A stretch of DNA of 64,000 nucleotides from positions 913,831-977,830 of the forward strand of contig KN832562.1 of NCBI GenBank assembly GCA_000827205.1, written 5' to 3'. A model generated the notes under the pieces. The model was not told the origin of the DNA. It ran no database searches and saw nothing but the letters and a program-made list of their open reading frames with translations. Origin of the DNA: Plicaturopsis crispa FD-325 SS-3. Taxonomy: Eukaryota; Basidiomycota; Agaricomycetes; Amylocorticiales; Amylocorticiaceae. Position numbers and translations under genes: made by a program. Positions within the stretch are counted from its first letter, which is position 1. The number at the start of each line of letters is the position of its first letter. Positions 10,601 to 64,000 of this stretch are shown here, one piece after another.

Positions 10601-11701
10601 AAGACTCTTCTCCCCAGATTTCGCCGCGACCATTGGGCAACGGAGACGACTTGGAGCGATTCCGTGACCTTTTCTATAATCCCAACCAATCTGAAATCAC
10701 CGCAGGGGGTAACGTCGACACGTATGCATCTCCTGAATCAAGCAGGGCGAGCGAGTTTTCTTGGGAACCTACCCCGAGAGAGCATCACGGCTTGTCGGAT
10801 GTCGTCCGCCAGCTCAGCCTTGAACTCGAAGAGTTTTCAGGCATGCAGGAGCAGCATACACCACCACACTCGCACACTCGGAGTCCATCCCTCCTTTCCG
10901 AACAACATTTTGGCCGCTCGCATAGTGGTCGGCGACCTCCAAACATCTCTACCAACTCCTTTGGATTTGTCTCGGCTGAGGTGGATAGGTCGCCGTCGCC
11001 CAACGACGAGACGCTACCTCTACGTATTCCTACGCGCGGTATCCGTCACAACGATTCATCCCTCAATGTTCCGGAGGACATAGCATCGTCGCGGGCTTCC
11101 TCCGTTCTAGAGCCATCGCCGGTGGAAGATGACACGTTTGGTAATGCTGATATCCTTTGCTCTGCGCCGCGATGAAATGCTGACTAGCGTGCTATGTTCT
11201 GTAGGCGTTCATCTGCGGATGGGCTCGATCGAAGCTGTGACTACCCCACCTACGACCGCGGGTGATCATCGAATTTCAAGTCATCTAACCTACCTCGAAG
11301 ATCGTCTGGCGCAGTCTGGCCATCCGCACGATAGGGGCAGTGCTGACCAGCCCGCAGAAAGCTCGACACGGATACTCTCGACCGACAGCTTACAACCTCC
11401 TCACTCGTTTGATCTCGCCCGTTTCAGCTATGTGACATCCAACACAGACACGTCTAGAATCTCTAACCTGTCCGATTTCCCGGTGCCACCCAAAGCTACT
11501 CCCGGTCATATGTCGCTCCTGCAATCGTACTTCGAGAATACTCCTGAACAACAGGCACAGGACTCTGCAGACTATTTCCCCCAGCATCCGCATGACGAGC
11601 CGGAGAACTCAGGGAATCGTCGACACCCCAGCTACCGAATGACCTTTGGCGGCGAGGAGGACATCGAGAACATCGCTGCTATACATTCTTCTCACATCTA
11701 A
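7661..11701 (+). CDS. Large Ser/Pro/His-rich low-complexity protein, function unknown
   Basis: Three exons (7661-9072, 9132-11140, 11205-11701) join in frame to 1305 residues; both introns are short GT-AG. Most of the protein is predicted disorder rich in Ser, Pro, Thr, Arg and His, including proline runs (APPPPARAPTPPH) and a His-Ser tract near 9410-9460 (HSHSHSHAHSHAS). One more ordered, charged block spans the first intron (EEGDELTRQREQWQALAKHG). RxxS-type sites are frequent (RSASDVR, KSRSHADL), suggesting a phosphorylated cytoplasmic scaffold or signalling protein. No catalytic or membrane domain was recognised. It converges with SMC1, whose stop lies 315 bp downstream. Confidence 0.8.
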
Positions 11702-12015
11702 TCTCCGTTGCTTTCTTTCGTTGTTTGTTGTGTTATACATTACTGCATCTTCTGCGCTTTCTCGCGCAGTTTCATGGTTTCACCGATGGACCACGGAATA
11801 TTTTTAACATCACATATCTTGCCTTTTCTATTGCGTACGACACGGCTATCCTTCATTTGCGTTGCTCTACATCGGTTTGCACATATCAATATAATACTAA
11901 GTACTGGCACAGCTAGTGATACAGCCAAACGGTGAAACAGAAAACAATACGACGAAAGCAATCGAGAATGAAAAGGATGCGCAGTGGTCAAGTTTGCGAG
12001 CTGGCTTTGGCGTGT
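11702..12015. terminator. Shared 3' region of two convergent genes
   Basis: A 314-bp AT-richer stretch between the stop of the Ser-rich protein gene (+) and the stop of SMC1 (-). It must hold both polyadenylation regions. No open frame of note. Confidence 0.4.
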
Positions 12016-45900: not shown

Positions 45901-46488
45901 GAGCGAATGGGACATTGCACACCTACCTTAATTGAATGACCCTGGCGTAACTTAGATAGTTCAGAGCTCAGGGGGCATCCTGGGAGATACGTCACGGCGG
46001 CCGTGTCCTATTGCTGTAGAATACGGACAGCTGGATGTTTCCGATAGTCGGGCGAGAAGACCCTGCTAAGGAATAGTGAGACAAAGTTGAGCTAGACTAG
46101 AAAGTCCTGGACGTACCAGAGATATCTGGCATCTAAGAGACCCTGCAGGATGTCACCCAGCAGGCGAAACGACGTGCTTCCCATACTGCCGGTGTTCTAG
46201 TCAGTACAACTGCTGTCATGCGATATTTACGCACGTTCCCTATAATGTTCACGGTGCAGAAGTGCGCCAGTACAGTGTATTGTCTGGTCACAGTCGAGAC
46301 CTACATCCTCAAAGCCCAAGTGAAGGACGTGGATCGCTGCACACGACATGAAGGTACGGGAGAGAAAATGAAAAACAGTCGCGTCGCGTATGGCGGCACT
46401 TCCCACGTGGTGCATCCGGATCGGGAACTTTCAAGTTGGCGCACCCGACGCTCAGCCACCTGAAAGTCAAGCTTGCCTCCGTACCACC
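42980..46488. other. Gene-poor region upstream of SDHAF2
   Basis: No recognisable coding sequence. Present are a TATA-like element with pyrimidine-rich leader near 43436-43560, another near 45500, and a short GGC/GGT triplet run at about 45373-45400. None leads to a frame with domain or splice support. Confidence 0.4.
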
Positions 46489-47018
46489 ATGTCGATTTTC
46501 CACCGTTGCTTTGCCCTTGCTCAGCCTTCAAAAAACCTTGGCCGCATGCTGTCTACAACGTCGCGCCTGCACGCTGATCCCTGGCCGCTACCGCACACGC
46601 CTCAGCATCTTGCCGCCACCGCTACGCCCTCAGAACTGCCGCCCCCCGTACCTCTCCCACGTCCAGACGAGAAGGTATCGACGATGCGCGCACGCCTCGT
46701 GTATCAGAGTCGAAAGCGCGGTACGCTCGAAAGCGACTTGCTTCTGAGCACTTTCGCCAGGGATTTCTTGGCCGATATGCAAGAGGAGGAGTTGCGGGAG
46801 TATGACAAAGTACGTCATTGCAGACATGGATAGGGTGTTGTAGCTGAACGTCTGCTCTATAGTTACTAGATGAGCCGGACTGGGACATCTACTACTGGGC
46901 TACGGGAAAGCGAGAGCGGCCTGAGCGATGGGCGAATTCTGCTGTCCTGGAGAAACTTGCAGTGCATGCGAGGAACGAGGGAAAAGTCGTCCGGCGGATG
47001 CCCGCTCTTTCAGATTGA
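46489..47018 (+). CDS. SDH5: Succinate dehydrogenase assembly factor 2, mitochondrial
   Basis: Two exons (46489-46809, 46863-47018) encode 158 residues. An Arg/Ser/Leu-rich presequence ([19 protein letters not shown]) targets mitochondria. The SDHAF2 core has [39 protein letters not shown], and [15 protein letters not shown]. The factor promotes covalent attachment of FAD to the catalytic subunit of succinate dehydrogenase (complex II). The intron falls at the usual spot in the core helix bundle. Length matches the family. It converges with the dehydrogenase gene 195 bp downstream. Confidence 0.95.
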
Positions 47019-47213
47019 AGCTGGAATGACTGGAGGAGAACGTTGTACGCTAGACTTGGCCATGAAGCAGCATCTGTATGGCTTACGAGATATCCAAATG
47101 ACAAAACATGGTCCACGTTCACTTCTATCCTTCCCTTTGCTCATGGCAGGTCTTACGAACATGGTGGCTTCTGCACTACACCGGGCATACACTTCTGCCT
47201 GCAAGGAGGCTGC

Positions 47214-48358
47214 TCAAAACACGGTTCCGCCACCTGGGAGAAGATATTTGGCCCCTTCAGGACACGCACACATCAATTGCAAAACAAAGTACTGACCATC
47301 TACCACAAAGTCCGCTCCGTTCACATACCTCCCGGCTCTTTGGGCACAGATCATAACCGCAACACCCGCTACCTCGTCCGGTGCCCCCATCCTTCCCATC
47401 GGATTTCTCTGCATCCAAGAGCTCCGCCCGACTTCAAGGCCCTCGCCCTCGTTGAGGATAGTATCCATATACCCCGGACTGATGGAGTTCACGCGGATAC
47501 CATAGCGTGCCCACTCCGCCGCGAGCGACGACTTCAGCGCGAGCAGCGCTGCCTTCGACGCATTGTACGCGGCCTGCGGCTGCGGGAAGTTCGTGCGGTG
47601 GGCAGAGATAGAGGCGGTCAGCAGGATGGACCCGCCGGTGCCCAGCGCGATCATGTGCCTGTTTGACACCTGGTCAGCGCGGGTTGGGGTGCGATGTTCG
47701 TACGTGGTAGCCGGAGGATACTTGCTTTCCGGCGGCTTGGGCACATAACCAGCTGCCCGTCGTGTTTACGTCGATGAGGCGGCGCCAGTCATCGACAGGA
47801 AAGTCTACGCTGTGCGCCGCCCCTACGACGCCGGCGAAGCACAGTAACATATCGACACTGCCCATCTTCTCTTTCGCGTCATTCATGGCCTAGATGAAAG
47901 ATTAGCTGGGTGTATATAAGGTATATTGAGACGACGCGCCTGTTCGACACCGGCTGCATCCCGTACGTCAACCTTCGCTGGTAGAACCTGTGCATTTGGG
48001 AATTCCCGGACAAGACCTGCAGCTGCCTCAGCCGGATGCGAAACGTCCATGAGGCATAGCTTCGACAGTCCGTGTTCGAGTAACGCGCGCGCTGTCGCGA
48101 GTGCTAGTGCACCTGATCCACCTGTGACTGTAGCACGCCATCATATGAGGATCATATACATATGGAAAACATGGGTTGAAGAGACTTACTGACGGCATTA
48201 CCGTGCACCGCGAATCGCGCTGCAGCGCGTTCTGCTGGAGACAGGGATTCGGGGAGAGGAGGCAGCGGTGCTGTGAGTGGATTTGACGCGGTGGAAAGCG
48301 TCATGCAGGGGAGCTGACGCGCCGTGAGCTCCGCGCGTGCTGTAGGATCTGCAGACAT
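47214..48358 (-). CDS. NAD(P)-dependent short-chain dehydrogenase/reductase
   Basis: Multi-exon gene starting at 48358 (MSADPTARAELTARQ). The Rossmann loop (VITGGSGALALATARALL) spans the first intron. Next come the cofactor-acidic strand (KLCLMDVSHPAEA), the CFAGVVG segment equivalent to the NNAG motif, the catalytic Ser in LLTASISA and the active-site YxxxK as YNASK. The C terminus ends FVVDGGGTVF after a last intron. The N-terminal extension before the Rossmann fold and the overall look resemble fungal sorbose reductase / arabinitol- or mannitol-type polyol dehydrogenases. The exact sugar substrate is inference. All catalytic residues are intact. Confidence 0.9.
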
Positions 48359-49426
48359 TCTTTGTATCAGTAGGCGGGGGTTTGTTTATGGGTTGTCGAA
48401 GAGGTGTAAAGGTAGTCTTACTTTAGTGCTGGGCATTTATCGATGTCATTTCGCGTACTGTCGGAGAAGGGTCCGCGGTAAGCGTCTAAAATGTGGGGAA
48501 TGCGGGGGTTCCTCTTCGCGGGGCTTTAGCGAGCTATAGATGTTTTGATAAGGTCCCATGTCCACGACCTGTGTCCACAGTGGCTGGGACATGACCATAA
48601 AAGCTGTCGGCCGAGTGACCGTGCTCTGGCTGGATCAGAGCAGTCCAATGGGGACAATTCAAATTTGAACGCGAAAAAATTCGACACGCTGATCCTAGGC
48701 CATGTTCTGCAATGTTGATATTATTCAAGTCGTCCTGGAGGCTACGGAGCCTTGAAATATGCCAAACGGAAGTAGGACTTACAAGCACGTTCACTGGCAG
48801 GCTTCGAACAAGTATCGGTAGGCGTTGCGCGCTCGGTAAATCCCGGTGGCGCTGAGTTGCCCTTTTGCGGCCCTTGCAATTTCTGCAAAACAAACACATA
48901 AAGTGCACAGAATCAGTTTTCACCACAGCATGAAGTCGGGGGACATGCGGCAGCACGATAACAGATTCTTACCTACATTGACCAGCAGGCAAAAGGGAGG
49001 CAAAAGAATTACGGCGCACGTCGCGACAGTTGCAAGCGAAACCGTGCGAAGTCGGTTTTGCAGAGGCAAACTTGGCAAGCCAACCTGGAATTTCTTTTGC
49101 CTGCCTCCTCCCACCAAACGCTTTTCCTACCTTGAATTACTGCGCGTTCGCCGCCGCCGCCTGGCTTCAACTATAGCCTACATAACTGCTCCAAACTTAC
49201 TCATAAATCGGTCAACTTTCCCGACCTCCAAATTCGACCGCTACGCTTGCGCGTACACCACACGATCACCTCCTGCCTTTTTTTCTGTGCCGCACCTTCG
49301 TCGACCGCTGCAGATTTTGTGCCATCCATTATACAACTATAACAAAGACTATAGCACGTCTCAATAACGCCTACAATATCTTACCCTGAACGCCACCCAA
49401 CTCTGAATTTCCAATAACATATCGCA
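48359..49426. promoter_or_regulatory. Divergent intergenic region, dehydrogenase and DHH1 promoters
   Basis: About 1.07 kb between divergent starts. The 200 bp before 49427 are C/T/A-rich, as expected for a highly expressed fungal gene leader. No supported open frame. Confidence 0.4.
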
Positions 49427-51080
49427 ATGTCGCAACAACAATCCTCTTCCTCCTCCACGTGAGTTTTCGACTTTGGATATGTGAAATATGAGTCTAACAG
49501 TCCTGCCTTAGCCCCGCTAGCTCCACCCCAACATCCCTCGAGCCCTGGAAAGCAGGGCTTCGCGCGCCACCCAAAGACGCCCGCCCACAAACTGAAGATG
49601 TCACCGCAACAAAGGGCATCGAATTCGAGGACATGTTCCTCCGGCGCGAGCTCCTCATGGGCATATTCGAGGCCGGATTTGAGAAGCCCTCGCCCATCCA
49701 AGAAGAAGCGATCCCTACCGCACTGACAAAACGCGATGTCCTGGCTCGCGCCAAGAACGGCACGGGTAAGACCGCCGCCTTCGTCATACCCGCACTGCAG
49801 CAGGTCGACGTACAGAAGAATAAGATCCAGGCCCTCCTCCTCGTGCCCACGCGCGAACTCGCGCTGCAGACAAGTCAGGTGTGCAAGGCGCTCGGGAAGC
49901 ACATGGGCGTGCAGGTCATGGTCACGACGGGCGGCACGACGCTCAAGGACGACATTTTGCGTCTTAGCGAAACCGTGCACGTGCTCGTCGGCACGCCTGG
50001 ACGTATACTGGATCTTGCGGGGAAGAGTGTGGCGGACCTGAGCGAGTGCCCGGTGTTCGTGATGGACGAGGCGGACAAGCTGCTGTCGCCCGAGTTTGCA
50101 CCGGTCATGGAGCAACTGTTAAGCTTCTGCCCAAGCGACCGTCAGGTCATGCTCTTCAGCGCTACCTTCCCCATGATCGTGAAAGACTTCAAGGCGCGTC
50201 GCGTCAATTTCATTATGTGCACGAGTACTAATTTTGGCGCAGGACAAACATATGAATCAACCATACGAGATCAATCTCATGGACGAACTGACCCTGCGTG
50301 GTGTCACGCAATATTACGCCTACGTCGAGGAGCGACAAAAGGTGCACTGTCTCAACACACTGTTCTCCAAGGTATGTCCGCGTCTGTACGTCCCGGTCGT
50401 ACGTGTTGCTCATATCGTCGCAGCTCCAAATCAACCAGTCCATTATCTTCTGTAACTCCACCAACCGCGTCGAGCTGCTCGCCAAAAAGGTCACGGAGCT
50501 CGGCTACTCGTGTTTCTACTCGCACGCCAAGATGCTGCAGGCGCACCGCAACCGCGTCTTCCACGACTTCCGCAACGGCGTGTGCCGCAACCTCGTCTGC
50601 TCGGACCTCCTCACGCGCGGTATCGACATTCAAGCCGTGAACGTCGTCATCAACTTCGACTTCCCCAAGAACTCCGAGACGTACCTCCACCGCATCGGCC
50701 GCTCGGGGCGCTTCGGACACCTCGGGCTCGCCATCAACCTCGTCACGTACGAGGACAGGTTCAACCTGTACCGCATCGAGCAGGAGCTCGGCACGGAGAT
50801 CATGCCCATCCCGCAGCAGATCGACAAGGGCCTCTACGTCGCGCCGGGCACCGCGGACGAGAGCGGCGGGCAGAAGCCGGGCGTGCAGGGCCAGACATCG
50901 CAGCAGCAGCAGTTGCAGCGGCAGCAAGGCCCCGCGCGGCCGCCCCAGCAGCAGCAGCCGGCACAGGGCCAGATCGTGTACCAGAGCAACGGGCGGGCGA
51001 GTGCGAACGGTGCGCCTCTCCAGATACAGGGATTGGCCGCGCGGACGCAGGCACGGACTGGCGCGCAGGTGGCGCGATGA
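49427..51080 (+). CDS. DHH1: DEAD-box RNA helicase Dhh1 (DDX6)
   Basis: Four exons (49427-49458, 49512-50193, 50243-50371, 50424-51080) give 499 residues. Motifs in order: Q motif with [19 protein letters not shown], Ia PTRELALQ, Ib [41 protein letters not shown]. The Gln/Pro-rich tail (QQQQLQRQQ) is typical of fungal Dhh1. The protein represses translation and promotes decapping in P-bodies. The third exon starts [13 protein letters not shown]. The second intron has a TACTAAT branch site but no GT at the position that would keep the family sequence: either a GC donor at 50194 is used, or a GT at 50203 adds three residues (ARR). Confidence 0.95.
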
Positions 51081-51706: not shown

Positions 51707-52601
51707 ATGCAGTCGGTGCCAGACATCCCGAGCGACATGTACCGCACTGCGCGGCTCGTCTACCGGGCGTACGAGGAGCCCGACATGGACCACATCGTGT
51801 CGTGGATGCAGGACCCGCAGTTCGCGTCCAGCCTCTCCCGCCGGGCGCCCAAGTGCGTACAAGTCCACACAGTCGTTATGAGCTCCCATCTGACCGCCGG
51901 AAACACAAACACGACTGGCAGACCGCAAAGCAAGCACGACATGTCGGGTCCGTGGAACGCGTGGCTTTCTGCAGCACTCCTCCGGCGAGTCCAGCTTGCA
52001 CTGCGCTACACATAAGTACACCAGGACTGAACTTGTGCATCAGTGCGATTGTGTGCCTGCCATCCGAGGCGGATCCCTTAGCCGCAGGGACGCCGATCGG
52101 GCTAGTCTACCTCGCGGGCACCGACCCCGCGCTCGCGCACAACAGGACCACCGAGCTGTCTGTATTCTTCGGCCCGCGGTTCCACGGCCAAGGGTACGGG
52201 ACCGAGGCGGTAAGGTGGGCGCTGGAGATGGCGTTCATGCGCCTGGGCCTGCACCGCGTGTTTCTGAGCACGCACGGCTGGCATGCAGCGGCGCGGCGGG
52301 CGTATGAGAAAGCGTACGTGGACTGTCGAATCAGCGGCTCATACAGTAACTCGATTGTGACGCGTTCTAACTTGCTTGCCTACATAGCGGGTTCACGCTT
52401 GAGGGGACGAGCAGGAAGGCCGTGTTCAGGGAGGGGCGCTTTTGGGATATAATCCAAATGTGTGTGTATTTTCCCGTCGTTCGTAAGCGGTTGTTTTTTG
52501 GTCGCGTTGCTGACCGTCTGCGCAGGGGGATTCTAGAGGAGGAATGGTTTGCGCTACAGGGAGAGGATGGTTCTCGCGAGAAATCAGAGAAGAAGACATG
52601 A
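51707..52601 (+). CDS. GNAT-family acetyltransferase, copy A
   Basis: Five exons (51707-51852, 51922-51984, 52044-52313, 52388-52459, 52526-52601) give 208 residues. The N terminus (DIPSDMYRTARLVYRAY) and the acetyl-CoA loop GQGYGTEAVRW, followed by AFMRLGLHRVFLSTHG and RRAYEKA, mark the GNAT fold. The tail GILEEEWFALQ is shared by the whole local family. The enzyme would move an acetyl group from acetyl-CoA to an unknown amine. Intron phases match copies C and E. The donor of intron 2 (after 51984) reads GC where the paralogues have GT; a GC-AG intron keeps the frame exactly. It is the first of six copies in the next 12 kb. Confidence 0.85.
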
Positions 52602-53727
52602 CACGTACACATACAATGTAGCGAAAACGGCAACGGTGGAAGATGTTGCATTCCCTCCGCGCGAAATATCTGGGGTACGGCTGAATGAGTGCGAGCCGGT
52701 GGAATCGGTGCGTGACGACCGCAATTGGGTGGCATGCAGAGGATTTGGATACGCAGGCTTGCGCGGCGCTGAGGATGACACAGCGTAGAGTGCATGCGGG
52801 GAATCGGCGCGTGCACAAGACGACACAGAACATCGCACCGCGGACTCGGACTCGGAAGTCTACTAGCAGGATGCAATCGCGATCCGCAGCGTCTGTTACC
52901 TGCATGCCATAGTGTGTGCGTCAGCCTCTGCCGCATTTGCAGGATCGTCGTTCTGGACAAGACAAGCATACCTCGTTCATGCACGAGTTGTAAGGCATGC
53001 CCGACGCGTGGAGGGTCTTGACAGGCAGTATCAGATCGATAGAGAAGAGAAAGTCACGGTGGCATGGCCGGCGGCCAGTACGGTTGCTTTACCAGTTGGC
53101 TTGAAGTAGGCGTCGGAACTCTAGGAGACTACTGGGAGACTGTGGCTATTATTCATCATCGCTGCGGCAGCGGCGGAATACATGGCTGAAGCCACTGCTC
53201 ATAGCGCAATTGCTGTATTATTTGATACTGAACGTGCACAAGTAAGTTGCGTACTCCAGAGAAGATATAAAGTGGCTGTTCACCTTTTTCTACATGACGG
53301 CGAGAGGAAACTCCTGGAAACTCGCGTCGTGGACCCCGCGTCGAAGTGCGAGTTCGCCGTGTCCTCTGGATTATCTGGATTCTGTTCTGGTACGGTCACT
53401 ATCGATCATATCTGTATACCTCTCCGAACCATGCCGTTTACACGTCGAACGCTCAAGTGTCTCAAGAAAGCAAGAAAGCACCAAGAAAGATACCGCAGCT
53501 TCCAATTCGGAGCCGTTACGGTCAAACACGAGGCTCGTGCGTGTACGGCAACTGGCAGTTCAGCACCCTGCGCAAAACCATAATGTGCCCACGACAAGCC
53601 CACGACTCTTCACGCTGCCAGCAGGCTCATATCTGTACTATATCTATATCGACAGTAAACCATGCTCTTCCTCCTCTCTGAAGTCTGGCTCCGTGCCCGT
53701 CTCCTCCTCCACCGCCTGCGCCTCGCC
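52602..53727. other. Intergenic region with one copy of a direct repeat
   Basis: Holds the 3' end of copy A, the 0.3-kb direct repeat (53101-53405) and the promoter of the coiled-coil gene. No complete gene supported. Confidence 0.4.
53101..53405 (+). repeat. Direct repeat, copy 1
   Basis: Matches 56546-56830 in the same orientation. Both begin ttgaagtaggcgtcggaact, run through a GGC-rich run and an ATG (53182, MAEATAHSA), and share a splice-donor-like site after GTGCACA. Small indels separate the two. The repeated ATG with conserved donor suggests a relic first exon carried along with a promoter. Confidence 0.75.
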
Positions 53728-54801
53728 ATGACGGAATCTACACCCCAACACGATATGCGCTTCTTCAACGAAGTGCCCAAGGAATGGCCCCTGGACGCCC
53801 TCACCGAGCGCCTACTTTCCTACAAGAATCACAGCACGTACCAAATCACCCATCTCAAGCAGTACAAACACAGGAGCCGGCCCGCCACACACGAGTTCGT
53901 GCTCGCGCTCGTGAGTTACGAGGAGCCCGACGGGCGCAGCGGCGAAGGCGCGCTCATCCTCGAGCGCTGCACCCAGCCCACGGCCGTGCAGCACGCGCGC
54001 TCCATGTCCGACAGCGACCTGCGCACGCTCTCCTCCTACTCCACGCACTCCCTGCAGACCGCCTCGCACAACTCCTCCATCTCCAGCTCGAGCGCCGTGC
54101 CCGCGTACGACAAGGTGACGCTCGCGGCGACGCCCGAGGCGCTGCTCCTCGGGCGCAACGCTAAGCGGCTGCGCACGTTCGAGGTCGACATGAACTTCGC
54201 GGAGAGGTCGTGCATGAAGCTCGTGGAGATGGCGAATTTGGTGCACGATGAGTTCCCCCAGTATCACCTGCAGAAGACTCAATGTTACTTTTTCGGGAGT
54301 TTGCTGTACGAGCTGTTCACGCGCATTGTGCGCGATACGTCGAAGGACTTCGTGCCTAACCCGAGGCCGCCGCTTTTGGGCCGCGTTGCGTTTACCAACG
54401 TTTCCATCGGGCAGCCGCCCGATTCGGTGGTTCTGGCCCTTGTTAAGTTGTTTGAGGAGAGGACGTGGCCTGCAGCGGTGCAAGTAAGCCTGCCATTTCC
54501 CTTCCCATCTTTGTGTGACTGAATTTCCGGATTGTAGCGGATCAATGCACGTGAACAGGAACATGCTGCGGAAATCGCTGCGGCTACTAGAGCTGCTGAT
54601 GAGCGGACCAGGGCAGCTGAGGAACGGGCCGAGGAACAGGCCAGGAGGGCAGACGAGCGAGATAGAGCGGCTGAGGAGCGGGCCAGGGCAGCTGAGGAGC
54701 GGACCAGGGCAGCTGAGCAGGCAATGGCGGAAATGGAGGCACAGATGGAGGCGCGCATCGCGGCCGAGCTGGCAAGGAGGGAGGCGGCCAGAGTAGCGTG
54801 A
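53728..54801 (+). CDS. 339-aa protein with C-terminal coiled coil
   Basis: Two exons (53728-54483, 54538-54801). The first exon encodes a globular part (RFFNEVPKEWPLDALTERLL, KNHSTYQITHLKQYKHRSR, MNFAERSCMKLVEMANLVHD). The second is almost wholly a highly charged coiled coil of repeated AAEERARAAEERTR heptads. The start at 53728 was preferred over an in-frame ATG at 53661-53663 because TATA-like sequence sits at 53639-53650. I have seen similar uncharacterised proteins in wood-decay fungi but know no function. The coiled coil points to oligomerisation. It sits between acetyltransferase copies A and B. Confidence 0.78.
54538..54798 (+). repeat. Coding repeat of Arg/Glu/Ala heptads
   Basis: Internally repetitive DNA (gcggctgaggagcgggcc and variants) encoding the coiled coil. 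It also creates long meaningless open frames on the opposite strand. Confidence 0.7.
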
Positions 54802-55321
54802 GCACGCGGTCCTTGTCGATCTTGCTCTATAACATCCTGCTGTCGTATCGCTCTCAGTTGTCGCGTTTGCTTTCAGTCGTCGTGTTTGCTTTCGTACGCC
54901 TCTCGCGGACATTTCGTCTCGCCTCAATGTTTTCCTTAGATTTGTGCTGCTGTACGTACGTCGATGCTCGTTGTCACATATACATTCCTCATTGCAAGAT
55001 CACGATACCTTGAAGCTTGGACGGGACTCTCTGAACCTACTCAACGGTGCTGCGTTTAACCACCACCACTCTCGTATCTATCTTGCTATGGAGCATAGAG
55101 CCAAGCAACAACGGACATATCACCCGCCACGACGTACGCACGTATGTCTCCGGATCCAAGATATGAGTAGATTCGATTGGCCTGGTGCGCGAAAGGGTGC
55201 ATGTATTACAATGCGCGTTGTAGGAACTAGTATGCGTGGGTCGCGTATCATGCCTGCGATACCTGGGGCCTGACTCGGAGCTGCAGCCTCAGTCTGCGAT
55301 GCACCAGCCGCCCCCGCTGCA
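54802..55321. other. Intergenic region
   Basis: 3' side of the coiled-coil gene and of pseudogene B. No supported open frame. Confidence 0.4.
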
Positions 55322-56278
55322 TCATGTCTGCGAATCCAATGCACCCGCTGCAGCTTCCTGCACATCCGATGTACCAGTCGCAGCCTCCTGCGACGCACCA
55401 GCCTCCGCCGCAGCACTGGCTTTCTTCCGCTCCTGCAGCGCAAACCAATCCTCTTCCAAATTCCCCTGCGTGCCGTGCTCGCGAAATCAGCCCACGGCAC
55501 TCCCAGTCCAACGCGAGGGGTAGGACGGGAAACGTACATGTTAATCGTATCCCAAAACATCCCCTCCCTAAACAACGCCTTCCGATTCGTGCCCTCCAAC
55601 ACGAATCCCCTACCCTCTCTCCCTTAGCTCACAATACCAACGTCATATGCTAGAACGACTCACGCTTAATCATAAGCCCTCCGCGCCCCGACATTCCACG
55701 ACGACGCGGTGCATCCCCAGCCTTAAAAACGCCTGCTCGAGGATCCACCCCACGGTTTCCGTGCCGTTGGTGGGCGGGGGCGATGAGGACGGAGAGGGTG
55801 GTGGAGCGGTTGTGGAAGAGGGCGGGGGAGGGCGGGGAGAAGTCGATGGCGCCGATGGGGGTGCCGGGGAGAGGGGAAGAGGGGGAGGAGGGGGCGGGGA
55901 GGCAGACGACGGCGCTAACGCGGGGCATTGGTCACTCAGACTGGTACTCGAGGCTTAGACGGAAGGACGTACCAGAGCACGTTCGGCCCAGTGCTCCGCC
56001 AGTTCCTTCTTGCTCCTCGGGCTGTATGCATCGTCTCCCCGTCAGCCCAGCGCCACGCACGAACGAACGAAAAAGAGTGGCAGAGTGGTAGAGCGGCAAG
56101 ATAGAGCGGAAAGGAACGCACTAGGGCGCGCGCACAGACGACTCTTTGAGCGTCACCGGATCCTCAGGCTGCATCACCAGATCCTCAGGCTGCATCCACG
56201 CGAAGACGTGCTCGACGCCCGCGTCCTCCCATGCGCGGTACACGAGTGCATGTCCGCTGAGATGTTCGGGGCTGCCAT
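55322..56278 (-). pseudogene. GNAT-family acetyltransferase, copy B (pseudogene)
   Basis: Clearly homologous to copy C along its length, but broken. After MAAPNISADMH a 13-nt deletion relative to copy C shifts the frame before VYRAWED. An 18-nt tandem duplication repeats the MQPEDxV segment. The second exon lacks 14 nt at its end (ERAL instead of ERAPAALL). The acetyl-CoA loop region has lost about 12 nt so that the RLGYGTEA stretch is gone, and the motif after LEQAF is also shortened. Splice sites and the last exon (LEEDWFALQERKKAS) are still recognisable, with a short remnant of the Ala/Ser/Gln tail seen in copy C. Lesions of several kinds suggest it has been non-functional for some time. 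Confidence 0.85.
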
Positions 56279-56545
56279 CTCGTCGTTGCGCGCAAGGGGT
56301 TCTACGGCGTGTTAATGTTGCGTTCGCCACGATGTGTTAATGTTGCGACGGCCGGGGTAAGGTGGGTTATATGGGCTCGAGCCAAAGCGACCGGCTCCGT
56401 AGCAAGCAGCCTATAGACTCTGTGCATATGGCAGGCAAGCAGAATTCCAAGGTGGGCCTGGAGATACGAGGAAGACGAATGATCTTGTTAGATCGTTCCT
56501 TGACCCGTTCAATTCACGGACAAGCGTCCGCGGGATATGTGGACT
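56279..56545. other. Promoter-side flank of pseudogene B
   Basis: Contains one arm of an inverted promoter repeat (about 56355-56440) matching the region upstream of copy C. Confidence 0.5.
56355..56440 (+). repeat. Inverted promoter repeat, left arm
   Basis: Pairs in reverse complement with about 58240-58350. Shared blocks are gaccggctccgtag, aagcagcct and atggcaggca. Each arm lies upstream of an acetyltransferase copy pointing away (B left, C right). Confidence 0.65.
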
Positions 56546-56830
56546 TGAAGTAGGCGTCGGAACTCCAGGATATAGTATACTGTGAGACTGTGGCCATCAT
56601 CCATCATCGCGGCGGCGGCGGAATCCATGGCTGAAGCCACTGCTCATAGCGCACATGTTGTATTACTTGACAATGATACTGAATGTGCACAGGTAAATTG
56701 CGTAGACCAGGGAAGAAGAGATAAACAATCGATCACCTTTTTCTACATGACGGCGAGAGGAAACTCGCGTCGTGGACCCCGCGTCGAAGGTGTCCTCTGG
56801 AGTCTGTTCTACGGTCAGTATCGGAGAGTA
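56546..56830 (+). repeat. Direct repeat, copy 2
   Basis: Second copy of 53101-53405. Same GGC-rich run, ATG (MAEATAHSAHVV) and donor-like site, with a few indels. It does not lead into a coiled-coil gene; the 3' end of a kinase relic follows on the other strand. Confidence 0.75.
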
Positions 56831-57063
56831 AGTGAGCTGAGCAATATGTAACTTCTAGCCTGGTGGGTTTCTGTCGGTTTCTCCGGTTTTGCTGCCTGTG
56901 TCTGTCAGTACTCGCTACACGTCGCGCGATGTCCTGCAACTTCCTCGTCGGTCCATGTTGCGCTTGGATTGGCCTCCCGCACAGTGATCTGCGTCTTTGA
57001 TGCCGGTGAGTAGCGTTCGGAACGGACTGGCAGTCGAAATAAGTGGGCAATTCTGGCATAGTA

Positions 57064-57893
57064 CTACTTACGCGCAGACCGAGTCAGGAATAATGCGAAC
57101 TTGATACCTGCAGCGATTTCCGCCGGGAGCGTCTCCCAATTACCTAGAAAAGGCGGCCGTTTGGCGACGTGCTTTCCAAGCGCCTCATACAGGTAGAAGA
57201 TTGACTCCAAGTCGTCGAGATACGTGTGTGGAAGGTGGCCTACTAAGCAGCACCTGGACCGACTGAAATGCATAGGATCCCTGTATACTCGTTAGTCGGA
57301 TATGGGCAGAGACGCTGTACCGTCCTGAGGTCGTGTCTGCGGGAGCTTGTGAGACGGCTGCGCGCGACAGCGGAGTCGAGATCTACCAGGATGCCGCGTT
57401 TTTTCCTGGACCGCCGCAATCATGGATCGGAGGATGTTCTGCGCGCTGACTCGGATGTCGCGATGCAAGATCACGGCTGGTGAGAATCGGTCGCGGTGAC
57501 CTGCGGACATGAGCAAGCGCCTGGAGATTCAGATAGTTAACACGTACCTATGAGGACATCGTGGGCGGCCCACAGCAATTCGAGGCTCCAAGTCGAGCTG
57601 AACTCTGTGTTCGGGCGGGGTGTCGAGACTATCCGGCGGCGCAGGTGCAGGTTGACATTGACATCGATAGACGCGCCCCGGTCTGAGGCTTGCTGCATAT
57701 CGCTTGAGGTCATTTGCATGCCGTCCTCGACAGTGTCCGTTTGAGAGATCTTCGAGTCAGTGCCACGCCCACGTCTGCTGTGGGGCTTGAAACCGTGTTC
57801 CGGGATGCCATGGTAGGACGCAAGAAGAAAGAACAGAATTTTTTCGTTGTACTGTTGTACGCACTCACTGAGCAGTAACGTGTAACAAATCAC
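57064..57893 (-). pseudogene. FunK1-type fungal protein kinase relic
   Basis: Minus-strand fragments of the Agaricomycete FunK1 kinase domain in correct order but in different frames: TPRPNTEFSSTW, an intron, ILHRDIRVSAQNIL (catalytic loop), GILVDLDSAVARS (metal-binding loop), FQSVQVLLS, and HTYLDDLESIFYL (the hallmark DDLES motif). A one-base shift falls in an A6 run between the catalytic and metal loops, another at the activation segment, and another just before HTYLDD. The N-terminal third is missing or unrecognisable. It is most likely a dead kinase gene trapped between acetyltransferase copies B and C. Confidence 0.72.
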
Positions 57894-58239
57894 CGGCAGG
57901 TCCCTAGGTATCAGTGGACGGGACTTCGAGACGGGGTCCAGCGGAGCAGTTGCGCGAAAGTGCAGAGCAAGGCTGAAAGCAGTGTCACGGCTGCAGGCCT
58001 GCGACGAGGTATTGGATGCGAGGCCTCTGTATGACCGGATTGCGTGAGCCCAACTTGTGTAAACGGTTTGAACTTTGCGTACCTTGCGTTGTCACGGTTG
58101 TTACGCGTTTACGGTTGGGTGGCACACGCACTGCGCAGCAGCCAGATAGCGGACGTAATCTGATAAGATCATTCATCATCTGTTCGTCTCCGCGCGCTGT
58201 CACTCTCCTCCTTCTCCGTATCTGTAGGACAATATGGTC

Positions 58240-58350
58240 CCACATCGTAAATCTGCCTGCCATATCCACAAGGTCTAGGCTGCTGCTTACTACGGAGCCG
58301 GTCACTCTGACTCAAGCGAGTAGCACTGCGGAGGTACCCGTCGCCATATA
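58240..58350 (-). repeat. Inverted promoter repeat, right arm
   Basis: Reverse complement of 56355-56440. The segment just downstream contains a catataac TATA-like element about 65 bp before the start of copy C. Confidence 0.65.
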
Positions 58351-58415
58351 ACCCTCTACCCGTCACCCGTTGAACTCGAACGCACGCCGTTTTACTAAAC
58401 ACCCTACACGAAGAG

Positions 58416-59695
58416 ATGGCAGCCCCAGACATCCCGTCAGACATGCACCGCTCCGAGCGGCTCGTGTACCGTGCATGGGAGGACGGCGACGTCGACCACG
58501 TATTCGCGTGGATGCAGGATCCGGTGACGCTTACGAAGTCGTCTGTGCGCGCGCCTTAGTGCGTTACCGTGTTTTTTTCTTTCGGCGTCGCGCTAACTGT
58601 TAGGGAAATAATGAATAGTCCAAGGAGTAAGAAGGAGCTGGCAGAGCACTGGGCCGAACGCGCGCCCGCAGCGCTCCTCTGGTACGTCCGTCCATGCATG
58701 CATCCTCTCCCCTTCCACATCCGCTCATCCCTCCCACACAGCGCGGTAATAACCCTCCCCTCCCCCTCTTCCCCTTCCTCCCCTCTCCCCGGCACGCCCA
58801 TCGGCGTCATCGACTTCTCCCCTCCCCTCCCCTCCCTCGCGCACAATCGCTCCACCACCCTCTCCGTCCTCATCTCCCCCTCCCACCAGCGCCTTGGCTA
58901 CGGCACGGAAGCGGTGGGGTGGATCCTCGAGCAGGCGTTTATGAGGCTGGGGCTGCACCGCGTGGCGCTGAGCGCGTCGCCGTGGAATGTGGGCGCGCGG
59001 AGGGCTTATGAGAAAGCGTGAGTCGTTCGATTTAGCTTGTGTTAATGTGGGGTGGGGACTGATAGAGTGGTGTGGTGGTGGTGTGGGTGGTGCTACAGGG
59101 GCTTCGTGTTGGAGGGGACGAATCGGAAGGCGTTGTTTAGGGAGGGCAAGTTCTGGGATACCATTAACATGTGCGTTCAAGTTTCCCGTTTTCCTGTTCT
59201 CCAGCCCTACCTTTCGCGTCGGAGTATGCTTGCGTTGGAGTACCGTGCGCTAATTTCGCGGACACGGACAGGGGAATACTGGAGGAGGACTGGTTTGCGC
59301 TGCAGGAGCGGAAGAAGACTGCAGCTGGTGCAGAGGCATCGCAGATTGAAGCTCAGGGTGCGTCGCAGACGGCTGCGGCTGGTGCTTCGCAGGAAGGTGC
59401 AGCTGGTGCATCGCAGGAAGGTGCAGCTGGTGCATCGCAGGAAGGTGCAGCTGGTGCATCGCAGGAAGCGGCGGCTGGTGCATCGCAGACGGCTGCAGCT
59501 GGTGCATCGCAGACGGCTGCAGCTGGTGCATCGCAGACGGCTGCAGCTGCGGGCGTTTCGCAGACGGCTGCAGCTGGTGCATCGCAGACTGCCGTAGCTG
59601 GTGCATCGCAGACGGCTGCTGCAGCTGGTGCATCGCAGACTGCAGCTGCGGGCGTTTCGCAGATTGAAGCAGCAGCTGGTGCATCGCAGACGTGA
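58416..59695 (+). CDS. GNAT-family acetyltransferase, copy C, with long repeat tail
   Basis: Five exons (58416-58558, 58619-58681, 58742-59017, 59099-59170, 59272-59695) give 325 residues. All introns are GT-AG; intron 1 has a CTAAC branch site. The N terminus is MAAPDIPSDMHRSERLVYRA; the GNAT core has LAHNRSTTLSVLI, the acetyl-CoA loop LGYGTEAVGW and AFMRLGLHRVALS. After LEEDWFALQERKKTA the protein runs into about 14 degenerate units of AAAGASQT/AAGASQEG, a tail absent from A, D and E. The catalytic part looks intact, so this copy is probably functional. The repeat is likely a disordered, length-variable extension. Confidence 0.87.
59340..59693 (+). repeat. 24-nt coding minisatellite
   Basis: About 14 units of a 24-nt (sometimes 27-nt) repeat built on gcagctggtgcatcgcag, all in frame inside the last exon of copy C. 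Neighbouring identical units (EGAAGASQ three times) indicate recent expansion. A short degenerate remnant is present in pseudogene B. Confidence 0.85.
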
Positions 59696-59931
59696 TTAGA
59701 ACGCGACCTACGCGTGCATATCGTTAATCATTTCAAACTGCGTTAACCCTGGACCTTTCCGCGCCGTGTAATCGAATTTTTATTCTGAAGACATACGTGC
59801 GGTGCTAAGTATACAGTGTCCATGTTGGATTTGAGACAAAGGCACATAGCACGGAGAAACGGACGCCCAATGTCAATATTGATCTTGTCGAACTTGCGAG
59901 CGAAATCCAAAAGAACTACATTATTTAACAC

Positions 59932-60916
59932 CTAGTATCGTCCCCGACTCAACGGATAATACGACACCTCCGCATCCGACGACAATGCACCACCACCACT
60001 CTTCTCCTCCTGCTCCTTCCTCTCCTGCTCCCGCATAGCAAACCACTCCTCCTCCAAAATCGCCCTGTACACGTTTTGCCGGTCAGCCATCCACACCACC
60101 AATTCGTAGACAGGTCGGAGCCACATAGAGACGCGTACGCACATGGAGATAGCATCCCACCACGCCCCCTCGCGCCACCCCGCCTTCTTGTGCACGCCCT
60201 CCAGTCTGAATCCCCTGTGTACCCCGTCCCACACCCATTAGTCCCCACCACACCACACGTAACTTGAATATCACGAGGACGACTCACGCCTTCTCATAAA
60301 CCCTCCTCCCACCCACATTCCCCGCCGCCGCCCCCAGCGTCACCCGATGCACCCCCAGCCTCATAAAAGCCTGCTCGAGCACCCATTTCGTCACCTCCGT
60401 GCCGTACCCTTTCCCTTGATGGGAGGGGGCGACTATTATTGACATACTTGTGGTGCGATTGTGCAGGAGAAGCGGGTCGAGGGGCGCTAGAGAGGCGAGG
60501 GCGATGGGCAGGGAGGATGGGCAGGGGTGTGGAGGAGGGGGAGGGGGAGGGGGAGGGGGAGGGGAGGTAGGCGACGATGCTAGTGGAGGGGAAAGGTGGA
60601 AGGGGAGACGGTAAGAGGTAGGGCAAGAGGGAGGGAGGGGACGTACCAGAGGAGGGACGTTGCTGCGCGGTGCGTCCATTTCTCTAATAGCTCCTTCTTG
60701 CTGCGCGGGCTGCATTGTGTTAGCACAATAACACTGCGAATAAGGTTGGAGAGCAGAAGGGACGTACATGGGCGCCTGCGCACTCGACATCGTGAGCGTC
60801 ACCGGGTCCTGGAGCCACACGAACAGGTGGTCGACGTCCGTGTCCTCCCAGGCGCGGTAGACGAGGCGGCCGAAGGCGGGGTGGAACATGTCGGAGGGGA
60901 TGTTCGGGGCTGCCAT
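59932..60916 (-). pseudogene. GNAT-family acetyltransferase, copy D (probable frameshift)
   Basis: Starts MAAPNIPSDMFHPAFGRLV at 60916 and ends in a Tyr/Ser-rich tail (SYYPLSRGRY) at 59932. Exon 2 (SKKELLEKW) and its GT donor are normal. Exon 3 then begins IVAYLPSPSP in the phase set by the splice sites, but the conserved block HNRTTSMSIIVAPS, loop KGYGTEVTKW and AFMRLGVHRVTL lie one base out of phase. The shift falls in or just after the CCCCCT run at 60533-60568. Either one base has been lost or gained in the run (dead gene or assembly error) or an unusual splice is used. All other motifs are intact, so the lesion is recent or not real. Confidence 0.75.
60533..60568 (-). repeat. CCCCCT microsatellite inside copy D
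   Basis: About five hexamer units (gaggggg on the plus strand) encoding Ser-Pro repeats in one frame and poly-Pro in another. The same linker is Ser/Pro-rich but shorter in copies B, C and E. Confidence 0.85.
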
Positions 60917-61461
60917 GGTTCAATTCGCGCGTAGATGGTATACGTACTGAGCACAGAGGAAGTGGGACGGCTTGAGGTGTATGTATAGATGGTGCGGTGA
61001 GTACCTGCGCAGTGCTTGATTGCAGTTCTTGCAGTCCGCAGTTGATAAGACAAGAGACAGAGACGAGAGGAACGGCCACGCAGTGCGATTCATCTTATCA
61101 GATGGCGTGATAAATCGAGAGCTGACTGTGCACCGAAATCGTGAATGCACATGGCCAGGGCGCTACTGCATTTCGAGGACATCCGGGAAGCACTGCACGT
61201 ATACATAGCACTACGTTTTCAAACGAACGAGACGCAACCCGTGTACGAGTTCGTGCGGCTCACATTGGACGTGCGTACGTATGCATGGGTCGGAGAACTT
61301 GTCAGGTTTTGCGGACGGTCTAGTTTTCAAACGAATGACATCTATCCGTGAAGCATACGAACAGTTAGTTCACAGGTGAACATTATCTGACCACATACTG
61401 CACGCTATCTCTAGACGACGCGTCTCGCGCCCGCGCACTCTATCTTCATTCGCGCGTCGTG
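60917..61461. other. Intergenic region between copies D and E
   Basis: Promoter side of D and 3' side of E. A short direct repeat of the phrase gttttcaaacgaa occurs at about 61217 and 61322. No supported gene. Confidence 0.4.
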
Positions 61462-62348
61462 CTACGAGCTCCCCTCCGCCGCCTCTATCCTCCGCTCAGC
61501 TTCCGCCTTCTCTTGCGCAGCGAACCACTCTTCCTCGAGTATACCCCTGCATGCACATAGCCCGTAAGCGTCCGAGTATACCCCAAGCACACGGAGGATA
61601 GTGGGGAGAAACGAGACACGCACATATTAATGACATCCCAAAACTTCCCCTCCCGGAAAAGCACCTTCCTTGTCGTCCCCTCATACGTGAATCCCCTACA
61701 ACACGCGTACCGTTACCATCTCACACCCAAGAAAACACGGTAGGGTACTCACGCCTTCTCATAAGCCCCCCTTGCCCTCGCATTCCACCCACCCGCAATC
61801 AAACCCACGCGGTGCACCCCCAGCCTTCTGAACGCCCACCCCAGTATCCACCTAACCGACTCGGTCCCGAAGCCGCGCGACTGGAAGGCGGGGGCGAGGA
61901 TGATGGAGAGGGTGGTGGTGCGCGAGTGGGCGAGGGTGGGGTCGATGGGCCAGAGGTCGATTAGGCCGATGGGTTGCGGGCTGGAAGGTGGATTTGAAGC
62001 AGAGGGGAGGCAGATTACGGCGCTGGTGGAGGTGAGTGGATGGGAAGAGGGAGGGGAAGGAGGGACGTACAAGAAGAGCGCGGTTTTGGACCGCTTGGTC
62101 CAGTATTCCTGGACGTCTTGTTTGCTCTGTAGTCTGCCGTGTCGAAGTATAGGTTATAGATGTACGGAATGAGAACGGGATACGCGGACGTACGTGATCA
62201 TGCGCGGCGACATCGACGTGACCGTCTCCCCGTCCTGCAGCCACTCATACACCGCGTCGATGTCCGTGGCCGCGTCCCACGCGCGGTACACCAGCCGCTC
62301 GGAGCGGAAGAGGTCTTTCGGGACTGAGGGGCGGAGGGGCTGCTGCAT
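61462..62348 (-). CDS. GNAT-family acetyltransferase, copy E
   Basis: Five exons (62348-62194, 62133-62071, 62022-61753, 61695-61624, 61546-61462) give 214 residues with the same phases and nearly the same exon sizes as copy A. Motifs: PKDLFRSERLVYRAWDA, AHSRTTTLSIILAPA, acetyl-CoA loop SRGFGTESVRW, AFRRLGVHRVGLI, then TTRKVLFREGKFWDVINM. The last exon is GILEEEWFAAQEKAEAERR with a short charged tail. The start at 62348 gives the same exon-1 phase as the paralogues; an ATG 21 nt further up lies inside a heptamer repeat. It is the most divergent of the intact copies and probably functional. Confidence 0.85.
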
Positions 62349-62351
62349 GTC

Positions 62352-62396
62352 GCAAAGTTCAAAGTTCAAAGTTCAAAGTTCAAAGTTCAAAGTTCG
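62352..62396. repeat. Heptamer tandem repeat at the start of copy E
   Basis: Six or so copies of agttcaa abut the start codon of copy E, followed by decayed copies to about 62440. Its position in the leader could change start-codon context or transcription. Confidence 0.8.
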
Positions 62397-62440
62397 AGGT
62401 GAGTTCAAAGTTCAAGGTGAGTTCAAGTGTAAGGTGAGCT

Positions 62441-62988
62441 GTGAGAGATGAAGGGTAGCAGTGATGTTCAGCGCACCTGCAGGACCTTTATACCGCGATC
62501 TCCTGGGCCTCATCGATGAACACCGACCGAAGGGGCTGTACTCGTTGAATAGAGATTTACGCGGTGCTAGCAAAGTGATTGACGCGTACCCAGAACAGCG
62601 GGCCCGGGCCATTTTGTAAGATGCGGACGAGTCGGCGGCGTGGTCGTCCTATCAGCTAAGTAGAGCGAGTCGAGTCAGACGCTAGTACCAATACTTGCGC
62701 ATCGAGCTACCAGCATGATAGGAAATATAGGATGTTGATGCATGGATATCGATGCAGGTTGGATGCAGGGAAAGTGCGCGGTGCCTTGCAAAGTCGCATC
62801 GGTGCCGAATCCGATATTCAATTTCAGAGTCACGCAACAGCCACAAGATAGATAGCGATATTGAAAATCGAAATCAGTTGTGAACGTTTGGACACTGGAC
62901 ATCCAATCATGTCGACGATCCTATCAAGTCGACGTCGCCTTTGTTATCATGTCGACGCCGCCGCCTTTGCCTCCTGCGCCTCTTTTTC
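62441..62988. other. Intergenic region between copies E and F
   Basis: No supported gene. A short phrase catgtcgac / catgtcgacgcc recurs near 62910 and 62948. Confidence 0.4.
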
Positions 62989-63767
62989 CTAATTAGCAAG
63001 CCACTCGGTCTCCAGGATTCCCCTGCAAGCGAAATGTTGAGTACAGAGGCGACGATAGGATGTAGGATGCAAGGTGTAAGGTGAATTGGATTGGGCGCAC
63101 ATTATGATGGTATCCCACCACTGCCCCTCCAGCCACGTATTCTTCCTCTTCACGCCCTCGTACACGAACCCGCTATCACCCCCAACATATCACCCACCCA
63201 CCCACACACAACATCAGTCACCCTCAAAAAACACATCAGGCTCATAGCACTCACGCTTTCTCATAAACCCTCCTCGCCCCCGCATTCCCCTCCGCCACCG
63301 CCAACCCCACCCGATGGAACCCATACCGCCTAAACGCCATCCCCAGCGTCCACCGCATCGCCTCCGTGCCGTACCCCCGCCGCCCGATGATGATCCCGAC
63401 GCCGGTAGTGCGGTTCTGCGAGGAGGAGGCGTCGGGGGGCGGGAGGTCTACGATGCCGATGGGGGTGGGGGAGGTGGGGGAGGGGAGGCAGACTACGACG
63501 AGGAGAAGCGCGACGGAGGCGTATTTCGTCCAGCCCTCCGCTGTCGTCATGCTTGCAGGTCTTTCCGCGCACCACACCACACGTCCGTCAGTTCCATATA
63601 TGACATTAGATTGGACGACGCGAAGGAACGCACTTGATAGCCTTGGGCCACATATACGCGAGCGTGTGCGGGTCCTGGAGCCACTCGTGCAGGATCGGCG
63701 CGTCGGTCTTCTCGTCCCACGCGCGGTAGAGGAGCCGCGGGGAGCGGAAGACGTCTTCGGGGATCTG
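62989..63767 (-). pseudogene. GNAT-family acetyltransferase, copy F (truncated, early stop)
   Basis: Homology starts at QIPEDVFRSPRLLYRAWDEK (63767) with no in-frame ATG before an upstream stop codon. The second exon runs straight into the third (ASVALLLVVVCLPSP), so the intron present here in copies A-E has been cleanly lost. The acetyl-CoA loop RRGYGTEAMRW, RYGFHRVGLAV and RRVYEKA are intact. The last exon reads GILETEWLAN and then TAG; beyond the stop the frame continues with EKEAQEAKAAAST, the expected tail, to a second stop at 62947. The copy is probably non-functional unless it starts at a non-AUG codon or an upstream exon exists. Confidence 0.78.
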
Positions 63768-63903
63768 CAGACGGCACTGCGTCGAACTGCCAGTAGTAAA
63801 GAAACCGCACAGTCACTGGCCACGCCACCGTGGCTATGTGTGTATGACGTTCCATCCTTCGTATGCAGTTGTTTTATGGTCGCGTCGATGACCGTCTGCG
63901 CAG

Positions 63904-63979
63904 GGGAATTCTCGAGGAGGAATGGTTTGCGCTACAGGGAGAGGAGGGTCCTCGCGAGAAATCAGAGAAGAAGAAATGA
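63904..63979 (+). pseudogene. Orphan last exon of a seventh acetyltransferase copy
   Basis: Nearly identical to the last exon of copy A (GILEEEWFALQGEEGPREKS versus GILEEEWFALQGEDGSREKS), including the preceding intron end and the sequence after the stop up to the window edge. Homology begins abruptly near 63855, right beside the 5' end of copy F on the other strand, and no upstream exons are present. It marks a recent rearrangement breakpoint and continues past the window. Confidence 0.8.
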
Positions 63980-64000
63980 CACGTACACGTACAATGTAGC

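What the first reader, a model, noticed from the sequence alone, without database searches (positions are those of the whole stretch)
51707..64000. A 12-kb birth-and-death cluster of one GNAT acetyltransferase family
Six copies (A +, B -, C +, D -, E -, F -) and a seventh orphan exon share one five-exon structure with conserved intron phases and exon sizes (exon 2 is 63 nt and exon 4 is 72 nt in A, C and E). They are in mixed orientation and in every state from intact to dead. Local expansions with this much decay and tail variation suggest selection for diversity, as in defence, self-recognition or xenobiotic acetylation loci. The function is not known to me.
Basis: partly seen in the sequence, partly recalled or inferred. 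Interest (0 to 1): 0.8.

Follow-up and report, generated by a model that had tools for sequence, protein, structure and literature searches.

The report
Decaying fungal GNAT acetyltransferase gene cluster
A fungal chromosome carries a small local family of acetyltransferase genes, some intact and some broken, that arose by repeated copying and decay; the working copies are under ordinary conserving selection, so this is a real but fairly ordinary gene-family expansion.

Summary
The cluster is real. Copies A, C and E are intact five-exon GNAT genes, all introns in phase 2, exon 2 always 63 nt and exon 4 always 72 nt. D keeps the structure but has one frameshift. B and F are broken (F also lacks intron 2), and an orphan exon 5 closes the window. 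A seventh, partly visible copy (G) follows a 5.5-kb N-run to the right. A second, partly collinear cluster on contig C27 holds four more copies, all broken, plus an exon fragment. So 3 of 11 copies seen have open spliced frames. A neighbouring gene, H, was copied with them. The flanks argue that C27 is a paralogous segment, not a haplotype.

Birth-and-death is supported. "Selection for diversity" is not: pairwise dN/dS is 0.10-0.46 (ML omega 0.135 for A, C, E), and windows over the acetyl-CoA loop stay below 0.8. The proteins are PF13302 acetyltransferases; half of the solved relatives of E are spermidine N1-acetyltransferases, but the SpeG cut-off is not met. Most likely: small-amine N-acetyltransferases, redundantly amplified by segmental and inverted duplication, then mostly lost. 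Substrate, expression and strain variation could not be tested.

The parts
51707..52601 (+). Copy A, intact GNAT, 208 aa; exons 51707-51852, 51922-51984, 52044-52313, 52388-52459, 52526-52601; intron 2 is GC-AG
   Evidence: splice check and translation; PF13302 65.5 bits
53728..54801 (+). Gene H, unknown family, 339 aa, two exons (53728-54483, 54538-54801), charged repeat (coiled-coil-like by eye) C-terminus; copied together with the GNAT genes
   Evidence: no Pfam match at E<=1
55407..56278 (-). Copy B, GNAT pseudogene: 13-nt deletion and 27-nt insertion in exon 1, only 44 nt of exon 2 alignable, 11- and 14-nt deletions in exon 3, 1- and 6-nt deletions in exon 5
58416..59695 (+). Copy C, intact GNAT, 325 aa; exons 58416-58558, 58619-58681, 58742-59017, 59099-59170, 59272-59695; tail made of a 24-nt in-frame repeat (59357-59692)
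   Evidence: PF13302 63.4 bits for its first 230 aa
59932..60916 (-). Copy D, five-exon structure kept, exon 3 is 292 nt (one frameshift, in a CCCTCC-rich tract); a spliced transcript is interrupted; the frame of exon 5 ends at 59932
61462..62348 (-). Copy E, intact GNAT, 214 aa; exons 62194-62348, 62071-62133, 61753-62022, 61624-61695, 61462-61546
   Evidence: PF13302 65.4 bits
62989..63763 (-). Copy F: no in-frame ATG in the open frame of exon 1 before the domain (stop at 63815), intron 2 absent, early stop in exon 5
63836..64000 (+). Orphan 3' module: intron-4 end, exon 5 (63904-63979) and downstream sequence, 88% identical to 52458-52622 of copy A
53130..53590 (.). Cluster-specific non-coding repeat (partial copy at 56544-56789; four overlapping places on C27); a search of the own genome with 52560-53600 found only the two clusters

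Best explanation
A lineage of RimL/SpeG-type GNAT N-acetyltransferases (PF13302) was multiplied by local inverted and direct duplication beside a DEAD-box helicase gene. A block A-H-B-C was also copied to, or from, a second locus (C27), and most copies then decayed. Shown: gene models, lesions, second locus, tree and purifying dN/dS. Inferred: the three intact genes A, C and E make active soluble enzymes that acetylate a small amine (polyamine-like or xenobiotic) with acetyl-CoA, and extra copies are dosage-redundant and free to die. No diversifying selection is needed to explain the pattern.
For: Three intact five-exon genes with phase-2 introns. PF13302 63-66 bits against cut-off 25.4. GxGTE of the acetyl-CoA loop and AYEKAGF are invariant in all three; in E they align with the matching stretches of 3owc and of spermidine N1-acetyltransferase 6vfm. 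dN/dS 0.10-0.46, ML omega 0.135. Pseudogenes B, F, P, Q, R, T and fragments. Tree groups {B,C,R}, {D,(F,G)}, E, and A with P and T. Read in reverse, C27 is T(A-like)-H-R(B-like)-Q(C-like)-P, partly collinear with A-H-B-C (coordinates). Window 44000-50000 is found once in the genome, and for C27:15600-20000 only about 0.7 of 4.4 kb has a second place, so the second cluster is not simply the other haplotype.
Against: dS between the intact lineages is 0.8-1.1, so NG86 is rough and positive selection on single sites cannot be excluded with three sequences. A has H, not Q or R, at the first position of the recalled (Q/R)xxGxG/A motif. Substrate is inferred only from sequence relatives. Nothing shows expression or solubility. 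The 5.5-kb N-run may hide more copies. Divergence is uneven between blocks (H dS 0.09, A-T 0.23, C-Q 0.44), so one single segmental duplication is too simple.
Confidence: 0.7

Rival explanations
1. Diversifying selection: the cluster is a detoxification, defence or recognition locus in which new copies are selected for new substrates.
For: Intact copies share only 50-57% amino-acid identity; tails differ; copy number differs between the two loci (7 seen on C9, 4 on C27). Single windows near the middle and the N-terminus reach 0.92-0.95.
Against: Pairwise dN/dS 0.10-0.46 for the eight larger comparisons; ML omega 0.135; no computed 40-codon window above 0.95; the C-terminal part has 0.09-0.20.
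Confidence: 0.15
2. C27 is the alternative haplotype of the same locus (or a mis-assembled copy), so what is seen is allelic structural variation of one hypervariable locus.
For: Partly collinear order when C27 is reversed; C27 is a small contig (200,731 bp) with the cluster close to one end; a piece of its left end (806-1976) is 83% identical to C9:1251405-1252562, on the same contig as the cluster but about 270 kb away.
Against: C27:1-4700 and 15.6-20 kb show no match to C9:913831-1023000 at E 1e-8, N-run apart; window 44000-50000 occurs once; C27:15600-20000 has only dispersed partial matches elsewhere. A deeper test (C27:100001-104000) was void because the stretch reads N.
Confidence: 0.12
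3. The amplified unit is primarily gene H (unknown function) and the GNAT copies are passengers.
For: H is intact at both loci with low divergence (dS 0.09, 90% aa identity), while all four C27 GNAT copies are broken.
Against: D, E and F were multiplied on C9 without a visible H copy (the N-run may hide one next to the orphan module); the second H on C27 is itself broken (stops inside, frame in pieces).
Confidence: 0.1

Closest known systems
PF13302 Acetyltransf_3 (RimJ/RimL-type GNAT)
   Same: Full-length domain match in A, C and E (63-66 bits, cut-off 25.4); GxGTE and AYEKAGF conserved
   Different: Interrupted by four phase-2 introns; six other PF13302 loci of this genome (three on C5, one each on C3, C14, C15) cover 116-138 profile positions in one open frame
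SpeG spermidine N1-acetyltransferase (e.g. 6vfm, 4jjx)
   Same: 18 of the 36 solved sequences matched by E are named spermidine N1-acetyltransferase (6vfm E 1.1e-11); best NCBIfam model for A, C and E
   Different: Scores 39-46 bits against an equivalog cut-off of 218; in E only about residues 89-200 of 214 align
Birth-and-death tandem gene families (general evolutionary model; recalled)
   Same: Copies from intact to fragment, mixed orientation, several sub-lineages
   Different: Rate and strain variation not measured here
GNAT-named proteins of Rhizoctonia solani AG1-IA (PMC9890813; passages read)
   Same: A fungus reported to encode a large number of GNAT proteins
   Different: That paper spells GNAT as glucosamine 6-phosphate N-acetyltransferase and stresses a 79-aa protein; no cluster of this kind appears in the passages seen

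Membership tests
GNAT superfamily, PF13302 | Domain match above the curated cut-off | tested here: met
   A 65.5, C (first 230 aa) 63.4, E 65.4 bits against 25.4
GNAT superfamily, PF13302 | Acetyl-CoA loop (Q/R)xxGxG/A (motif recalled) | tested here: met
   QRLGYG in C and QSRGFG in E fit; A has HGQGYG, i.e. H at the first position
GNAT superfamily, PF13302 | Acetyltransferase activity | not testable with these tools
   no assay
SpeG spermidine N1-acetyltransferase | NCBIfam equivalog cut-off (NF011709, 218 bits) | tested here: not met
   45.6, 38.9 and 46.2 bits for A, C (first 230 aa), E
SpeG spermidine N1-acetyltransferase | Polyamine as substrate, allosteric polyamine site (recalled) | not testable with these tools
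   N-terminal part of E not aligned to the SpeG chains
Birth-and-death gene family | Intact and dead paralogues in one cluster | tested here: met
   3 of 11 copies seen have open spliced frames; G is seen only from exon 3 on (G by eye)
Birth-and-death gene family | Copy-number differences between strains or species | not testable with these tools
   no relatives of this genome held; only a second locus in the same genome
Diversifying (positive-selection) locus | dN/dS above 1 overall or around the acetyl-CoA loop | tested here: not met
   0.10-0.46 pairwise, windows with the loop 0.22-0.79, ML 0.135; single sites not tested

The most novel reading that the evidence does not exclude
GNAT and H form a co-amplified two-gene module: an acetyltransferase with a fast-changing partner protein that travel and invert together. 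Over the first 240 aligned codons of H the two loci have dN about equal to dS (0.059 against 0.053, omega 1.13, no interval computed; whole-gene omega 0.61, interval 0.36-1.07). H could then be the diversifying component of a recognition or toxin-modifying pair, with the GNAT as the conserved enzyme.
Probability: 0.06. Interest if true: 0.6.

Novelty: new member of a known kind. Interest (0 to 1): 0.27.

Why it matters
It gives one genome with eleven visible copies of a single enzyme gene in stages from intact to remnant, at two loci and with a co-duplicated neighbour. This is a compact case for dating gene birth and death in fungi. If strains differ in copy number, or if H proves to diversify, it would point to an unrecognised detoxification or recognition locus. 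As it stands it is an ordinary expansion of a large enzyme family with unknown substrate.

Tried and rejected
Haplotype reading of C27: weighed and set low. The intended deep control on C27:100001-104000 was void because that stretch reads as N throughout.

Transposon involvement: an open frame at C27:7154-7489 looked to me like a retrotransposon RNase H remnant, but Pfam at E<=1 gave no match, so I make no transposon claim for it. A search with 52560-53600 found only the two clusters, so this stretch is not a dispersed element at that sensitivity.

Rescue of D by another acceptor: the three AGs in the first 200 bases after exon 2 were examined; two leave the frame shifted, and the third keeps the frame but cuts exon 3 to 159 nt. 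The frame is open without splicing through introns 1 and 2 (ORF 60284-60919); I treat translation of such an RNA as unlikely.

Gene H against Pfam: nothing at E<=1.

Literature: 8 searches (two searches returned no paper) listed no paper whose title or shown abstract describes such a cluster. Only passages of PMC9890813 were read; the others were seen as listings.

Structure prediction was not run: the spliced proteins are not a single-frame translation of the window, and I did not test whether the tool would take them.
Full report
What was checked. The window is G000:C9:913831-977830 of a 33.2-Mb genome in 49 contigs. Introns of 48-101 nt and neighbours such as a DEAD-box helicase at 49498-50637, NMD3 domains at 35367-36518, an SMC protein at 16019-16756 and a P450 at 5919-6632 fit a fungus; fungus, and probably basidiomycete, is my inference, and no call names the species.

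Gene models. Splicing A, C and E at the sites found gives complete proteins of 208, 325 and 214 aa with exons 146/63/270/72/76, 143/63/276/72/424 and 155/63/270/72/85 nt; by exon length every intron is in phase 2. Intron 2 of A is GC-AG. D has the same layout (149/63/292/72 for four exons), but exon 3 is 292 nt, one base out of frame against 270-276 nt in the intact copies; of the three acceptors examined, two leave the frame shifted and one would cut exon 3 to 159 nt. That the shift lies in the CCCTCC-rich tract is read by eye. B carries a 13-nt deletion and a 27-nt insertion in exon 1, 11- and 14-nt deletions in exon 3, and only 44 nt of exon 2 align. F has no in-frame ATG before the domain (in-frame stop at 63815), lacks intron 2, and ends early in exon 5. 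The orphan exon 63904-63979 matches all 76 nt of A exon 5 at 93% and lies in a 165-nt module 88% identical to 52458-52622.

Beyond the window. C9 reads N for 5,518 bases from the first base after the window; whether this is an assembly gap or a withheld stretch I cannot tell. Then follows an inverted copy of F (C9:983349 onwards), here called G. F and G are 94% identical over 302 aligned bases of exons 3+4 and 84.5% over 536 aligned columns with introns. By eye, G keeps a complete exon 5, and its exon 3 has a one-base frame break near the N-run, where assembly error is possible. No other match to the window occurs up to C9:1023000 at E 1e-8.

A second cluster. Own-genome search with a family protein (the typed copy D) found, outside C9, copies on contig C27 at 4849-15507 and four weaker hits of 32-40% identity on C3, C5, C2 and C25. 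I name the C27 copies P (+), Q (-), R (+) and T (-), with an exon-5 fragment S (-). All four are broken. P shows no exon 1 or 2 and has three in-register stops. Q lacks most of exon 3, including the acetyl-CoA loop, and exon 5. R has one-base insertions in exons 1 and 4 and one in-register stop. T lacks the first part of exon 1, has offsetting indels in exon 3 that scramble part of the domain, and has a broken frame in exon 5 (the extent of Q's loss also by eye). So 3 of 11 copies seen (A-G, P, Q, R, T) have open spliced frames, all three on C9. The genome search says itself that its counts are lower bounds.

Order and origin. Reversed, C27 reads T (A-like) - H copies - R - Q - P; the part T..H..R..Q parallels A-H-B-C on C9, with an extra inverted H segment (coordinates). 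This suggests a segmental duplication, but block divergences differ (dS: C-B 0.37, C-Q 0.44, C-R 0.46, A-P 0.25, A-T 0.23, H 0.09), so several events or gene conversion must have acted. The C27 flanks (1-4700 and 15.6-20 kb) show no match to C9 in the 109 kb compared, N-run apart. They have dispersed partial matches elsewhere, one of them on C9 itself about 270 kb to the right (1251405-1252562, 83%). The C9 left flank 44000-50000 is found once in the genome. I therefore read the clusters as paralogous loci of a haploid assembly, not as two haplotypes. A deeper control on C27 was void because the stretch reads N.

Tree. A maximum-likelihood tree of exons 3+4 (10 of 11 copies; Q was left out because most of its exon 3 is missing, though it is in the pairwise table) gives {B,C,R} (84), {D,(F,G)} (97; F,G 100), these two together (85), E outside them, and A with P and T on the other side of a branch with support 100. 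B and C join at only 71, and P,T at 47. So at least four lineages predate the recent losses.

Selection. NG86 gives dN/dS 0.24 (C-B), 0.17 (C-Q), 0.10 (C-R), 0.32 (A-P), 0.26 (A-T), 0.37 (A-orphan exon, 24 codons), 0.36 (A-C), 0.45 (A-E) and 0.46 (C-E); bootstrap upper bounds for the last three are 0.52, 0.62 and 0.67. D, F and G were not included. Pairs with a dead member include neutral time and still lie far below 1, so these genes were probably under constraint for most of their history and died late. Global ML omega for A, C and E is 0.135 (GY+F3X4). In 40-codon windows the highest values are 0.95 (N-terminus of A-E) and 0.92 (C-E, before the loop), and one window of A-E could not be computed; windows that include the acetyl-CoA loop (residues about 120-127) give 0.22-0.79, and the C-terminal part 0.09-0.20. 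dS between A, C and E is 0.8-1.1, so these figures are rough, and three sequences cannot exclude selection on single sites.

What the enzymes are. A, C (first 230 aa) and E match PF13302 with 63-66 bits (cut-off 25.4). Only E was compared with solved structures: the nearest chains are a probable acetyltransferase (3owc, 7.2e-12) and spermidine N1-acetyltransferases (6vfm, 1.1e-11; 18 of 36 matched sequences bear that name), with aminoglycoside 6'-acetyltransferases weaker (6erd, 6.9e-8). The SpeG model of NCBIfam is the best for all three proteins but scores 39-46 bits against a cut-off of 218, so they are SpeG-like in the core, not SpeG by that test. GxGTE and AYEKAGF are invariant; A has H where C and E have the Q of the recalled loop motif. 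Small-amine acetylation is thus an inference from relatives. PMC10416765, seen only as a listing with the start of its abstract, describes a canavanine-selective enzyme with the fold of the polyamine subclass, which shows how far substrates may vary. Bacterial relatives are abundant (80 loci kept of 186, best-segment identity 26-48%).

Gene H. Between A and B lies a two-exon gene of 339 codons (53728-54483, 54538-54801), intact also at C27 (90% amino-acid identity), with relatives on C15, C40 and C1 (47-55% identity) and no Pfam match. Its dN/dS is 0.61 (interval 0.36-1.07), and 1.13 for the first 240 aligned codons. This is weak, but it is the only omega above 1 that I saw at the locus, and it is not in the GNAT.

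Verdict. The mechanism best supported is duplication and loss of a constrained small-molecule acetyltransferase, without evidence for selection for diversity.

Noticed in passing
window 53728-54801; C27:9672-10868 (L053/L054): Gene H, a protein family of unknown function copied with the GNATs, possibly fast-changing; a second H copy on C27 (12775-13373) is broken (end of the C27 copy by eye).
   Followed up: partly
window 59357-59692: Coding minisatellite: 24-nt unit, 13.6 copies, in frame in exon 5 of copy C; copy R on C27 has only about two such units by eye.
   Followed up: partly
window 60284-60919 (-): In copy D a 211-codon frame is open straight through introns 1 and 2 and into the exon 3 body, although the spliced frame is broken.
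   Followed up: partly
C9:977831-983348: A run of 5,518 N begins at the first base after the window; it may hide further copies.
   Followed up: no
C27:1-4700 (L053): Left end of C27 is a patchwork of dispersed repeats: 1-545 is 99% identical to C37:18647-19191, and a 116-bp piece (1987-2102) recurs on many contigs.
   Followed up: no
window 62353-62395: Perfect 7-nt CAAAGTT array (6.1 copies) just upstream of the start codon of copy E.
   Followed up: no
C15:717859-718608, C15:745132-745712, C40:9794-10540, C1:3188670-3189457: Further members of gene family H (47-55% identity); whether GNAT genes lie beside them was not looked at.
   Followed up: no
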